From: Flavobacterium sp. KS-LB2
GTDB taxonomy: Bacteria; Bacteroidota; Bacteroidia; Flavobacteriales; Flavobacteriaceae
Direction: 5' to 3'
DNA: 64,000 bases
Assembly: GCF_036895565.1 (NCBI RefSeq)
Contig: NZ_CP145904.1
Coordinates: 2,790,001 to 2,854,000 of the forward strand
Positions 4,073 to 9,767 of this stretch are shown here, piece by piece. The notes under the pieces were generated by a model. The model ran no database searches and was not told the DNA's origin. It was given only the letters and a program-made list of their open reading frames with translations. How positions within the stretch are numbered: position 1 is the stretch's first letter; every line of letters starts with the position of its first letter. Position numbers and translations under genes: made by a program.

Positions 4073-5023
4073 TTATAGTTTTATTTTTTTTACGTTTTCG
4101 ATATTCTCCAAAAACCAGTCATAGGTTTTCTGTATTCCTTCTTCCAATTGCACCTGATGCTTCCATCCCAATCCATGCATTTTGGAAACATCCATCAATT
4201 TTCTTGGTGTTCCATCCGGTTTGGTACTGTCCCAAATGATTTCTCCTTGGTGTCCCGTGATGGTTTGAATGGTTTCTGCTAATTGTTGAATCGTTAAATC
4301 CTCTCCCGTTCCTACATTGTATAAATAATCCGGTAATTTGTTCTCCAAAGCAAATACCACAGCCTGTGCCATATCGTCTACAAATAAGAATTCTCTCATA
4401 GGAGTTCCACTTCCCCAAAGGGTCACCGGAGCATTATTATTTACCTTGGCCTCATGAAATTTTCGCATCATCGCCGGCAGAACGTGCGAAGAAGTTAAAT
4501 CGAAATTATCATGGGTACCGTATAAATTCGTCGGCATTAAGCTTACGTAATCTTTATTAAATTGTTTCCTAATAGCTTCACAGGCTTTAACCCCAGTAAT
4601 TTTTGCTATTGCATACCATTCGTTAGTCGGCTCTAAGGAATCCGTAAGCAGGTATTCTTCTTTTAAGGGTTGAGGCGCTAGCTTTGGATAAATGCAAGAA
4701 CTTCCCAGAAAAATAAACTTTTCCACACCGGATTGCAGTGCGGTATCGATTAGATTATTTTGGATTTGCATGTTTTCCATTATAAATTGATAAGGAAAAT
4801 TATTGTTGGCCAAAATACCTCCTACTTTTGCAGCAGCATCAATAATCACTTCTGGTTTTTCGGCAGCTATATAGTCCTTTACTGCTTGTTGGTTTTTTAG
4901 ATCTAATGTTGCACTGGATGCACCAATTAAGTTCGTATACCCCTTAGCCAAAAGTGTTCTCCAGATAGCGCTGCCCACCATGCCGTTATGTCCTGCTATA
5001 TAAATTTTAGTGTTTTTATGCAT
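4073..5023 (-). CDS. fcl: GDP-L-fucose synthase
   Basis: This is a 316-residue SDR-family epimerase/reductase (WcaG/Fcl). The NAD(P)-binding motif GHNGMVG is at residues 11-17, AAKVGGILANN follows, and the active-site Tyr-Lys is in WYAIAKITG. It converts GDP-4-keto-6-deoxymannose to GDP-L-fucose with NADPH, working directly after Gmd. The frame is open to an in-frame Met at 5050, but the Met at 5023 begins the conserved MHKNTKIYIAGHNGMVG and gives the family's usual length, so I chose it. Immediately upstream lies the hairpin-repeat array, which separates fcl from manC. Confidence 0.96.
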   Translation of the reverse strand: MHKNTKIYIAGHNGMVGSAIWRTLLAKGYTNLIGASSATLDLKNQQAVKDYIAAEKPEVIIDAAAKVGGILANNNFPYQFIMENMQIQNNLIDTALQSGVEKFIFLGSSCIYPKLAPQPLKEEYLLTDSLEPTNEWYAIAKITGVKACEAIRKQFNKDYVSLMPTNLYGTHDNFDLTSSHVLPAMMRKFHEAKVNNNAPVTLWGSGTPMREFLFVDDMAQAVVFALENKLPDYLYNVGTGEDLTIQQLAETIQTITGHQGEIIWDSTKPDGTPRKLMDVSKMHGLGWKHQVQLEEGIQKTYDWFLENIENVKKIKL

Positions 5024-5087
5024 TGTATTTTTTCTTAACTGTACTTTCAAAAAGTGATTTTGTATATTTTTAAACGAAGTTACCGAA

Positions 5088-5490
5088 ATTTCTCATTTAA
5101 AATAATTTGACTCCCTTTAGGGCAGGGGAAAACAAATTATTTGTATTAGGTTAAACTTTGTATCAAACTAAATATTCTCGTTTCAAAATAATTTGGCTCC
5201 CTTTAGGGTTGGGGAAAAACAAATTATTTGTATTAGGTTAAACTTTGTATCACACTAGATATTCTCGATTTAAAAAAAATTTGACTCCCTTTAGGGCAGG
5301 GGAAAACAAATTATTTGTATTAGGTTAAACTTTGTATCAAACTAAATATTCTCGTTTCAAAATAATTTGGCTCCCTTTAGGGTTGGGGAAAAACAAATTA
5401 TTTGTATTAGGTTAAACTTTGTATCACACTAGATATTCTCGATTTAAAAAAAATTTGACTCCCTTTAGAGCAGGGGAAAACAAATTATTT
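5088..5490. repeat. Array of five hairpin repeats, left flank of the DUF559 gene
   Basis: The core CTCCCTTTAGGG recurs at 5111, 5197, 5285, 5371 and 5459 (the last reads CTCCCTTTAGAG). Spacing alternates 86 and 88 nt, so two subtypes alternate with a 174-nt super-period: one has GACTCCC and GGGCAGGGG, the other GGCTCCC and GGGTTGGGG. Each core is framed by complementary arms AAATAATTTG and CAAATTATTT (first unit 5100-5109 and 5133-5142), so each unit can fold as a roughly 43-nt hairpin. Linkers of about 43-45 nt separate the hairpins. On the minus strand the last unit resembles a terminator, with a T run after the stem just past the nuclease stop. Confidence 0.95.
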
Positions 5491-5495
5491 TCAGA

Positions 5496-5885
5496 TTATT
5501 CTTTGCAACATTCTCCAATTTTCTCCAAAACAGGATCTATTTCAGTTAGCACTTGTTCATTAGTAAAACGAATAACCCTTAATCCTTGAAAACTTAAAAA
5601 ATCTGTTCGTTCTTGATCCTTTTCAACTTGTTCTAAAGTGTTATGATATTCTCCATCTAATTCAATAATTAATTTATGCTGATGACAATAAAAATCAACA
5701 ATATAAATACCAATGGGATGTTGTCTTCTGAATTTTAATCCATGAAATTGATTTGATTTTAATCTTTGCCACAAATAGACTTCAGCTTCTGTTAAAGTTT
5801 CCCTTAAGGATTGAGCCTTCAAAAATCCGCTAGCGGGAGCTCCCTTCCACATACTTTCATCATACTGCAAATCCTTCTCTTTCAT
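5496..5885 (-). CDS. DUF559 (Vsr-like, PD-(D/E)XK fold) endonuclease-domain protein
   Basis: This is a small basic protein of 129 residues. After a short leader (MWKGAPASGF, residues 12-21) comes the DUF559 core: a helical LRETLTEAEVYLWQRLK, the basic GLKFRRQHPIG, then the nuclease-like strand IVDFYCHQHKLIIELDGEYH. D64, E75, D77 and H81 are candidate metal/catalytic residues. The family belongs structurally with Vsr and restriction-type nucleases; its biological role is not established. It is wholly enclosed by the hairpin repeats, which end 5 nt after its stop and resume about 55 nt before its start, so gene and repeats look like one unit inserted between fcl and manC. DNA nicking or cleavage is an inference. 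Confidence 0.88.
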   Translation of the reverse strand: MKEKDLQYDESMWKGAPASGFLKAQSLRETLTEAEVYLWQRLKSNQFHGLKFRRQHPIGIYIVDFYCHQHKLIIELDGEYHNTLEQVEKDQERTDFLSFQGLRVIRFTNEQVLTEIDPVLEKIGECCKE

Positions 5886-5939
5886 TTTGATTTAACTAAA
5901 CGTAATTAACAGCTTTTGTATTTCATCATTTTATACTTT

Positions 5940-6216
5940 ACGCTAGATATTATTCTCGATTTAAAAATAATTTGACTCCCTTTAGGGCAGGGGAAAACAA
6001 ATTATTTGTATTAGGTTAAACTTTGTATCACACTAGATATTCTCGTTTCAAAATAATTTGGCTCCCTTTAGGGCAGGGGAAAACAAATTATTTGTATTAG
6101 GTTAAACTTTGTATCACACTAGATATTCTCATTTAAAATAATTTGACTCCCTTTAGGGCAGGGGAAAACAAATTATTTTTTGTATGCCTGTTTATGGTCT
6201 CCCTTTAGGGTCGGGG
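5940..6216. repeat. Array of four hairpin repeats, right flank of the DUF559 gene
   Basis: Cores are at 5976, 6062, 6147 and 6199. The first three are spaced 86 and 85 nt and keep the complementary 10-nt arms. The last is only 52 nt further on, has lost the A/T arms and reads CTCCCTTTAGGGTCGGGG. The left edge at about 5941 (CTAGATATTATTCTCGATTT) matches the linker tail CTAGATATTCTCGATTT seen inside the left array. The nuclease gene therefore occupies the place of a normal linker between two hairpins. Confidence 0.93.
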
Positions 6217-6249
6217 AAAAACCAAGAACCGGCACTCCGTCTTGTTGAT

Positions 6250-7254
6250 CTAATCCAACAAATCCGAATTTTCTCTTTCCAGCTGATTGTATACATTTTT
6301 AACATCCTGAGAATTATCTTTTTGCAAAATGAGATTAGCTGTATCAGTATATACAAAAATGGTGTTTTTAAGTCCGATAAAAGCAGTATAATTATCAGTA
6401 CCAATTACCATATTCCCGTTTTTATCGACCGGATGCCCCGTAGAGACTAGGTAATCATATACGGATTCAAAAGACCCTAAATCCGACCAATCAAATTGAG
6501 AAGATACTACTTTGATTTTTTTACTTCGTTCCATTACCGCATAATCAATACTTATGGAAGGAATATCCATAGAAAGCTTCAAATCTAAATTTCCATTGGT
6601 ATTATTTTCCCAAGCCAATTTTGATTTTTCGTATACCTCTGGAGCATACATTTTTAGCTCGTCCAAAAGCACTCCTGCTTTAAAACAGAACATCCCGCTA
6701 TTCCAAAGAAAATTCCCTTTGGCAATAAAATCACGAGCCGAAACCTGATTTGGTTTTTCTCTAAACGAAACCACATTGTCTCCTTTACGTTCAATATAAC
6801 CATAACCGGTTTCCGGTTTAGTGGGAACGATGCCAAAAGTAACGATGTATCCGTTTGCCGCTTTCTCGACCGCTTCTTGAATCGCTTCTTCATAACACTC
6901 CATTTTGCCAATAATATGGTCCGATGGAGTGACTATTAAAATATCATCTGGTTGCGAAGCAAAAGCCGCAAAAGCAATCGCCGCAGCTGTATTTCTTGGA
7001 GTAGATTCAATTATATCTACATATTGAGTATTCGATTTTTCTAAGACATTTTTACTCAAATGACAGTTATCAATATTACCGACAACCATTACTTGATCAG
7101 CAATATTACGATTGCGATCTACAGTCATCTCAAACAAGGATTTACCATCAAAAATATCCAGATATTGCTTGGGTTGGCTTTTACGTGATAACGGCCATAA
7201 GCGACTACCAACACCTCCAGTAAGGATGACATGTGTAATTGAATGCTTTTCCAT
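6250..7254 (-). CDS. manC: Mannose-1-phosphate guanylyltransferase (short form)
   Basis: A 334-residue nucleotidyltransferase with the GDP-mannose pyrophosphorylase signature GGVGSRLWPLSRKSQPKQYL at about residues 14-33, ESTPRNTAAAI, and TPSDHII. It makes GDP-mannose from GTP and mannose 1-phosphate in the cytoplasm, supplying Gmd/Fcl and possibly a mannosyltransferase. It ends after the nucleotidyltransferase and short left-handed beta-helix part and lacks the phosphomannose-isomerase domain of longer ManC proteins. This is common in Bacteroidota and probably not a truncation. It lies 26 nt downstream of the cytidylyltransferase gene. Confidence 0.95.
   Translation of the reverse strand: MEKHSITHVILTGGVGSRLWPLSRKSQPKQYLDIFDGKSLFEMTVDRNRNIADQVMVVGNIDNCHLSKNVLEKSNTQYVDIIESTPRNTAAAIAFAAFASQPDDILIVTPSDHIIGKMECYEEAIQEAVEKAANGYIVTFGIVPTKPETGYGYIERKGDNVVSFREKPNQVSARDFIAKGNFLWNSGMFCFKAGVLLDELKMYAPEVYEKSKLAWENNTNGNLDLKLSMDIPSISIDYAVMERSKKIKVVSSQFDWSDLGSFESVYDYLVSTGHPVDKNGNMVIGTDNYTAFIGLKNTIFVYTDTANLILQKDNSQDVKNVYNQLERENSDLLD

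Positions 7255-9732: not shown

Positions 9733-9767
<35 letters not shown>

What the first reader, a model, noticed from the sequence alone, without database searches (positions are those of the whole stretch)
5088..6216. DUF559 nuclease-like gene enclosed in an array of hairpin repeats: a candidate self-contained element
Nine copies of a core CTCCCTTTAGGG, most framed by complementary 10-nt arms (AAATAATTTG / CAAATTATTT), surround a single small Vsr-like DUF559 gene. The gene replaces one linker: the sequence just right of the gene (CTAGATATTATTCTCGATTT) matches the linker tail inside the left array. The arrangement interrupts the fcl-manC sugar-nucleotide string. It recalls REP/RAYT pairs, where a nuclease-type protein is tied to the palindromes it acts on, but with a DUF559 protein instead of a Y1 transposase. 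That the protein binds or cuts the hairpins is inference.
Basis: partly seen in the sequence, partly recalled or inferred. Interest (0 to 1): 0.72.

Follow-up and report, generated by a model that had tools for sequence, protein, structure and literature searches.

The report
Nuclease gene bounded by palindromic repeats
A small gene for a predicted DNA-cutting enzyme sits inside an array of hairpin-forming repeats that related genomes lack at that spot, and the same pairing recurs in many bacteria, which suggests a little-noticed kind of minimal mobile element.

Summary
In detail: nine CTCCCTTTAGGG cores (0.2 expected) enclose one 129-aa DUF559 (PF04480) gene between fcl and manC. None of the 17 other fcl-manC junctions seen holds cores or DUF559; four are only 9-12 nt wide. 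The nuclease-palindrome link is general. In 40 genus loci palindrome cores are about 95 times denser beside the domain than far away (both sides in 31/40, pattern designed on such loci). In 80 loci from many phyla, chosen by protein alone, inverted repeats bracket DUF559 in 38/80 against 3/177 other genes. In relatives DUF559 also lies in frame, without an intein domain, inside MetH, LeuRS, RecG, a RecB-like helicase and, outside the genus, HsdR; one MetH site is found empty, with one hairpin, an inverted pair, or full. Copies of that related repeat track DUF559 presence. The fold's nearest characterised relative is the homing endonuclease I-Bth0305I. Best reading: a REP/RAYT-like mobile system run by a homing-type nuclease. 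That the protein cuts or moves palindromes is inferred. Against: arrays without the gene exist, and 42/80 distant loci lack strong inverted repeats.

The parts
5496..5885 (-). DUF559 (PF04480) solitary nuclease gene, 129 aa
   Evidence: Pfam E 1.2e-37; AF2 model pLDDT 84.6; fold matches 3hrl and I-Bth0305I; dN/dS 0.12, 0.17 and 0.26 against L113, L116 and L125
5100..5142 (+). hairpin copy 1: arms 5100-5109 / 5133-5142, core 5111-5122
5186..5229 (+). hairpin copy 2, core 5197-5208
5274..5316 (+). hairpin copy 3, core 5285-5296 (left arm one mismatch)
5360..5403 (+). hairpin copy 4, core 5371-5382
5448..5490 (+). hairpin copy 5, core 5459-5470 (core and left arm one mismatch each); 5 nt from the stop codon of the nuclease gene
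5965..6007 (+). hairpin copy 6, core 5976-5987, first one upstream of the nuclease gene
6051..6093 (+). hairpin copy 7, core 6062-6073
6136..6178 (+). hairpin copy 8, core 6147-6158
6195..6224 (+). hairpin copy 9, core 6199-6210, different short arms TGGT/ACCA
4073..5050 (-). fcl (GDP-L-fucose synthase), one side of the invaded junction (longest ORF; the likelier ATG is at 5023)
   Evidence: NCBIfam NF047922 E 9.4e-142, below that model's cut-off; Pfam Epimerase
6250..7254 (-). manC-type mannose-1-phosphate guanylyltransferase, other side of the junction
   Evidence: Pfam NTP_transferase and ManC_GMP_beta-helix

Best explanation
The array plus gene is one copy of a minimal mobile element in which a homing-type nuclease (DUF559) is the mobility enzyme and the palindromes are its cis-acting ends. 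SHOWN: gene and palindromes co-occur far above chance in the genus and across phyla; occupied, hairpin-only and empty alleles exist at the same kinds of place; the protein is under purifying selection and its predicted fold is that of a homing endonuclease; copies of one repeat family rise with nuclease presence; hairpin arms differ between loci yet stay complementary. INFERRED: the protein recognises the palindrome, or an unoccupied target, and nicks or cuts there; repair from an element-bearing copy inserts palindrome-nuclease-palindrome; deletion and tandem duplication then leave inverted pairs, solo hairpins and arrays such as the window's. Where the hairpins are read in an open frame they give Pro/Gly-rich linkers, so one sub-lineage persists in frame inside enzymes, apparently without splicing.
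For: Local association in 40 genus loci and with an intergenic control, 7.5 against 0.25 per kb. Pattern-free cross-phylum test: inverted-repeat score of 14 or more in 38/80 DUF559 loci against 3/177 other genes and 6/1200 random windows. Empty alleles: fcl-manC; MBOAT junction with overlapping stop-start in 17 of 30 loci; MetH site 1 filled in G032 and empty in near relatives at 95-98% aa identity upstream; MetH site 2 empty, solo hairpin, inverted pair, apparent internal-deletion remnant, or full. The filled state on the MetH tree needs 5 changes, at least 3 forced; inserts from two MetH sites intermix in one group (support 81). Copy number: 3 or more copies in 47/102 DUF559+ against 10/147 DUF559- genomes. 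Fold and profile: 3r3p I-Bth0305I. dN/dS 0.04-0.26 in 13 pairs. Arm complementarity above cross-locus pairing.
Against: No cutting, binding or movement is demonstrated. Arrays exist without the gene (own genome, G007), as do cores in DUF559-negative genomes (ten such genomes have 3 or more copies of the MetH-type repeat). In 42/80 distant loci no strong inverted repeat brackets the gene, so the link is not obligatory. By the same inverted-repeat score the window itself is not significant (score 11, reached by 91 of 800 controls). MetH inserts show some vertical signal inside one subgroup (rho 0.30, Mantel p 0.037). DUF559 clades mostly keep to their own site, compatible with old insertions plus losses. 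No target-site duplication was seen. The copy-number test ignores relatedness of the genomes and counts the element's own flanking hairpins, and it concerns the MetH-type repeat, not the window's.
Confidence: 0.57

Rival explanations
1. Passenger model: the palindromes are the mobile or amplifying units, spread by other machinery (another transposase, template switching, recombination between copies), and DUF559 genes are carried along because two copies happened to enclose them.
For: Arrays and dispersed cores without DUF559; the near-regular 85-88 nt spacing in the window looks like tandem amplification; different repeat types around different DUF559 clades; solitary GIY-YIG nucleases sit in other palindromes.
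Against: DUF559 is bracketed in many phyla whereas other genes on the same contigs are not; copy number follows DUF559.
Confidence: 0.19
2. Pure homing-endonuclease model: DUF559 cuts the empty host allele and is copied there by repair; the palindromes are only tolerated linkers or transcription signals, not substrates.
For: Fold relation to I-Bth0305I; clades tied to sites in MetH, LeuRS and polysaccharide junctions; filled and empty alleles.
Against: Does not explain solo and paired palindromes dispersed in DUF559+ genomes, nor why palindromes also bracket the gene at intergenic sites.
Confidence: 0.13
3. Host-function model: DUF559 is a repair or hairpin-processing nuclease (Vsr-like) kept by selection, and the palindromes regulate it or are its substrates.
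For: Purifying selection; a Caulobacter Vsr-like protein with a DUF559 domain is linked to DNA damage in cells lacking methylation of a palindromic motif (PMC12907096, passages).
Against: Patchy presence (158/398 genus genomes), polymorphic sites, in-frame copies inside unrelated enzymes.
Confidence: 0.06
4. Regulatory hairpins or terminators in a capsule-type operon with an unrelated ORF; association by chance.
For: Location among sugar-nucleotide genes; AT-rich arms resemble terminators.
Against: speak against chance; in-gene copies are translated through.
Confidence: 0.03

Closest known systems
REP/RAYT (REPtrons, TIRtrons) and REPINs
   Same: Short palindromes flank a small enzyme gene; pairs and solo copies are dispersed; some are intragenic (PMC3733652, abstract and section 16 read; REPINs recalled)
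   Different: RAYTs are tyrosine transposases with an HUH motif tied to GTAG-tagged repeats; here the enzyme is a Vsr/EDxHD-fold DUF559 protein, the hairpin is followed by a second G-run, and no GTAG occurs in the window's array
EDxHD homing endonucleases (I-Bth0305I)
   Same: Fold (3r3p, TM 0.76 by target length) and profile similarity; presence/absence at fixed sites. PMC9403480 (passage) already places a DUF559 gene in the EDxHD family; PMC3943268 (passages) describes that family
   Different: No intein domain in the MetH copy tested; bounded by palindromes; dispersed palindrome-only copies
Rickettsia palindromic elements
   Same: Palindromes inserted in frame in protein-coding genes (recalled; seen here only in a search listing)
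   Different: Recalled as carrying no nuclease gene; here a nuclease domain is part of the in-frame insert. The window's own copy is intergenic
Free-standing GIY-YIG homing endonucleases
   Same: Small solitary nucleases; in this genus GIY-YIG genes also sit in palindromes
   Different: Different Pfam family and different palindromes

Membership tests
PF04480 DUF559 | Pfam match above gathering score | tested here: met
   128.5 bits against 20.6
NCBIfam PRK09767 equivalog | score above curated cut-off | tested here: not met
   80.1 against 218 bits
REP/RAYT | Y1/HUH transposase encoded | tested here: not met
   Pfam gives DUF559 and a sub-threshold MTES_1575 only; nearest folds are 3hrl, I-Bth0305I and, weaker, Vsr
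REP/RAYT | GTAG tag beside the hairpin | tested here: not met
   no GTAG or CTAC in 5095-5495 or 5886-6230
REP/RAYT | palindromes flank the enzyme gene | tested here: met
REP/RAYT | dispersed non-autonomous copies, often inverted pairs | tested here: met
   for the MetH-type repeat in relatives; for the window's own repeat only a second array in its genome
EDxHD homing endonuclease | catalytic-domain fold | tested here: met
EDxHD homing endonuclease | active-site residues | tested here: inconclusive
   E35, D64, E75, H81 and D90 invariant in 11 sequences; not superposed residue by residue
EDxHD homing endonuclease | cleaves the empty target and homes | not testable with these tools
   needs biochemistry or genetics
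Intein | splicing (Hint) domain | tested here: not met
   Pfam on four in-frame host proteins (L027 MetH, L038 RecB-like, L042 RecG, L194 HsdR) shows host domains, DUF559 and sub-threshold MTES_1575, no Hint domain
Classical IS/MITE | target-site duplication | tested here: inconclusive
   none seen by eye at MetH or fcl-manC; not searched formally
Rickettsia palindromic element | in-frame palindrome in coding genes | tested here: inconclusive
   true of relatives' copies, not of the window's intergenic copy; sequence kinship not tested

The most novel reading that the evidence does not exclude
There is a trans-phylum class of minimal mobile elements made of a homing-endonuclease-type nuclease (DUF559/EDxHD, and in parallel solitary GIY-YIG) bounded by palindromes that it recognises. 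The nuclease drives dispersal of palindrome-only copies as RAYTs drive REPs, and one DUF559 lineage spreads as unspliced in-frame domains inside essential enzymes such as LeuRS, with the palindromes doubling as peptide linkers.
Probability: 0.4. Interest if true: 0.92.

Novelty: new variant of a known kind. Interest (0 to 1): 0.76.

Why it matters
DUF559 genes are common (167/392 genomes of the phylum sample) and Pfam still labels the family 'unknown function'. Tying them to palindromic repeats would give the family a role and supply a candidate mobility enzyme for palindromic repeats without one (PMC3733652 notes the lack for CGTC REPs, a different class). It would also expose in-frame nuclease inserts in LeuRS, MetH, RecG and a RecB-like helicase as a way for selfish DNA to live inside important genes. 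The window's copy, in a polysaccharide operon with empty relatives, makes this testable in laboratory strains.

Tried and rejected
Chance and simple terminator readings were set aside. Anti-phage defence: PADLOC gave only weak, partial hits for the window protein (DpdF 2.2e-6 over 50 residues, mREase_II 4.3e-5, HEase 1.3e-4). Intein: no splicing domain. A first inverted-repeat score inside the genus was weak for array-type loci (14 of 40 loci above the 99th percentile of 800 controls; the window scored 11 and was not significant), because arrays carry palindromes in one orientation. I then used a core pattern designed after reading the loci printed, so searches are in-sample; searches are not. 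L152 was fetched but not used. One search's core regex was mistyped and found nothing; one search replaced it. Vertical inheritance of MetH inserts: no correlation over 17 filled alleles (rho 0.01, Mantel p 0.43) but weak correlation in a 12-row subgroup, so partly vertical. In one search two short rows (L058, L166) were dropped. The 80 loci are the best 80 of 579, not a random draw. One of the 30 GIY-YIG loci (L387) lies in a 701-aa frame. Papers: one search lists 14 papers naming DUF559; for 12 I saw only the listing, for two (PMC12907096, PMC9403480) passages. Listings showed no report of a DUF559-palindrome pairing; I read none of those papers whole, and most subscription papers are not held.

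Full report
OBSERVATION. The window lies in a 3.41 Mb single-contig genome. The core CTCCCTTTAGGG occurs nine times (one with a mismatch), only at 5111-6210, against 0.20 expected. Six copies have perfect arms AAATAATTTG/CAAATTATTT, two have one mismatch, the ninth has short unrelated arms. Cores are 85-88 nt apart, except 517 across the gene and 52 before the last. Two units tested fold well on both strands. The gene at 5496-5885 (-) is DUF559; 5 nt separate its stop codon from hairpin copy 5. Neighbours are gmd, fcl and a manC-type gene.

EMPTY SITES. The fcl search covered 150 genomes; 70 matched and 30 gave loci. In 18 of the 30 loci (the window's included) fcl and a manC match lie on the same piece; none of the other 17 has a core or a DUF559 hit between them. 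In G149, G045, G003 and G010 (fcl 85-89% aa identical) the aligned ends are 9-12 nt apart; the two closest relatives, G181 and G152 (91%), have 462 and 632 nt there without cores or DUF559. So the 1.2 kb is a lineage-specific insertion, or an old one lost elsewhere. G239 (L116) has the same fcl-DUF559-manC order, and all members of the window's DUF559 clade (L113, of which L068 is a second fetch, L116 and L125; SH-aLRT 97) lie beside a manC-type gene.

SAME GENOME. G000 has one DUF559 match but a second array about 100 kb away with a related core, other arms and no DUF559 hit. It sits between an MBOAT gene and a gene of about 300 aa without Pfam match, which I call SGNH-like by eye. In seven relatives that junction carries DUF559 and cores (L119, L120, L123, L127, L130, L132, L133); G007 carries cores only. 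Of the 30 loci, 17 have the two genes overlapping stop to start, 4 have cores, 7 have a gap of 224-1259 nt without this core, one a 22-nt gap and one could not be placed. Three of the seven (L335, L346, L356) hold a GIY-YIG gene (Pfam) amid other repeats.

ASSOCIATION IN THE GENUS. The 40 loci are the window, 31 fetched as short-frame matches (two, L114 and L117, turned out to be MetH inserts) and 8 in-gene loci. Cores lie within 300 bp on both sides in 31 and on at least one in 38; density is 4.16 per kb near and 0.044 per kb beyond 1.5 kb. Restricted to intergenic DNA around stand-alone genes it is 77 in 10.3 kb near against 12 in 48 kb beyond 2.5 kb. The pattern was built on such loci. The exact core CCCTTTAGGGNNGGGG is in 18 of 150 genus genomes: beside DUF559 in G133, G010, G019, G044, G025, G186, G030 and G000 (8 of its 17 hits); no DUF559 known beside it in G007, G144, G005, G031, G051, G017, G003, G036, G166 and G181.

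ACROSS PHYLA. For 80 loci selected by DUF559 protein from GTDB representatives (best 80 of 579), the best inverted repeat between the 300 bp on either side of the domain scores 14 or more in 38, against 3 of 177 other genes on the same contigs (Fisher 1.4e-19) and 6 of 1200 random windows. Record titles include Nitrospira, Chloroflexi, Proteobacteria, Planctomycetota and candidate phyla. The recurring form is a C-run hairpin followed by a second G-run. Of the other 42, some show weaker hairpins, others (for example L231, L289) nothing.

IN-FRAME COPIES. 158 of 398 genus genomes and 167 of 392 phylum genomes have DUF559 at E 1e-10 or better, many matches inside long open frames. NCBIfam and Pfam name hosts: methionine synthase (two sites), leucine--tRNA ligase (three places: L045, L061, L043), RecG, a RecB-like helicase, a type ISP protein (L052) and, in other genera, HsdR. 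In 40 genus in-gene loci the pattern lies on both sides within 200 bp in 30, one side in 7, none in 3; by eye some of those ten carry degenerate hairpins, L050 none. At MetH site 1 the filled allele of G032 differs from the empty ones of G012, G154 and G106 (95-98% aa identity upstream, 92-93% downstream) by 134-135 codons that begin and end in palindromes read as PPTPEGG and APPSGAGG. At MetH site 2 the linker is empty in most (12-19 aa, once 29), or has one hairpin (L078), an inverted pair (L035, L072), an apparent internal deletion (L036) or the full 155-156 aa.

MOVEMENT. On a tree of 38 MetH rows (empties drawn from the nearest matches to G032) the filled state needs five changes, at least three forced. 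Host and insert identity are uncorrelated over 17 filled alleles (rho 0.01), but weakly correlated within the larger insert group (rho 0.30, Mantel p 0.037), so both inheritance and transfer are likely. In a DUF559 tree of 95 rows (113 columns, many forks unresolved) 49 in-gene inserts form one clade (95); one in-frame copy (L052) falls outside it; inserts of MetH sites 1 and 2 intermix in a group of 18 (support 81). Copies of CCCCCTTYGGGGGNNRGGGGG average 5.3 in 102 DUF559+ and 0.65 in 147 DUF559- genomes; 3 or more copies in 47/102 against 10/147. The ten exceptions reach 21 copies (G056). Relatedness was not corrected for, and the window's genome has none of this repeat.

PROTEIN. Model pLDDT 84.6, pTM 0.77. 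Foldseek: 3hrl (a Neisseria endonuclease-like protein), 3r3p (homing endonuclease I-Bth0305I) and, weaker, AbaSI/PvuRts1I and Vsr; the profile search agrees on the first two. E35, D64, E75, H81 and D90 are invariant in 11 rows. dN/dS is 0.04-0.26 in 13 pairs.

HAIRPINS. Over 102 distinct locus/arm combinations the arms' complementarity score averages 8.8 against 5.3 when left and right arms come from different loci; 41 of 102 exceed the 95th percentile. The window's AATAATTTG/CAAATTATT against L113's AATCATTTG/CAAATGATT is a two-sided compensatory change. So the paired form appears to be selected, or regenerated by template switching.

GENERALISATION. GIY-YIG genes in the genus also sit between inverted repeats of other sequence: score 14 or more in 20 of 30 loci against 9 of 450 windows. 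One (L379) looks like an ordinary terminator, so this is a lead.

JUDGEMENT. What it works like: a REP/RAYT-type pairing of an enzyme with palindromes, with a homing-endonuclease-type enzyme. Membership: not a RAYT, not an intein; the fold fits the EDxHD homing family. Cutting and moving are inference.

Noticed in passing
L335, L346, L356; L363-L392: GIY-YIG nuclease genes in the genus are bracketed by other palindromic repeats (such as GTCACCCTGAGCGCAGTCGAAG) in 20/30 loci, against 9/450 control windows; at three MBOAT junctions a GIY-YIG gene stands where others have the DUF559 array.
   Followed up: partly
L056:2190-3620 (G000:C1 about 2692190-2693620): Second hairpin array in the window's genome with two hairpin types in alternating orientation and no DUF559, at a junction where seven relatives have DUF559.
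   Followed up: yes
L113-L133 neighbourhoods: Window-type DUF559 genes recur at a few junctions of polysaccharide-type genes (manC; rfbB-like; rfbD/rfbA-like; MBOAT; some neighbours named by eye).
   Followed up: partly
window 9733-9766: A perfect trinucleotide microsatellite, (ATA) x 11.3, between genes of the same cluster.
   Followed up: no
L117 (G181:C44), L131 (G181:C46): Draft contigs end within a few hundred bp of DUF559 copies, as expected if the repeats break assemblies.
   Followed up: no
L043 (G016:C58): A leucine--tRNA ligase frame with two DUF559 inserts.
   Followed up: no
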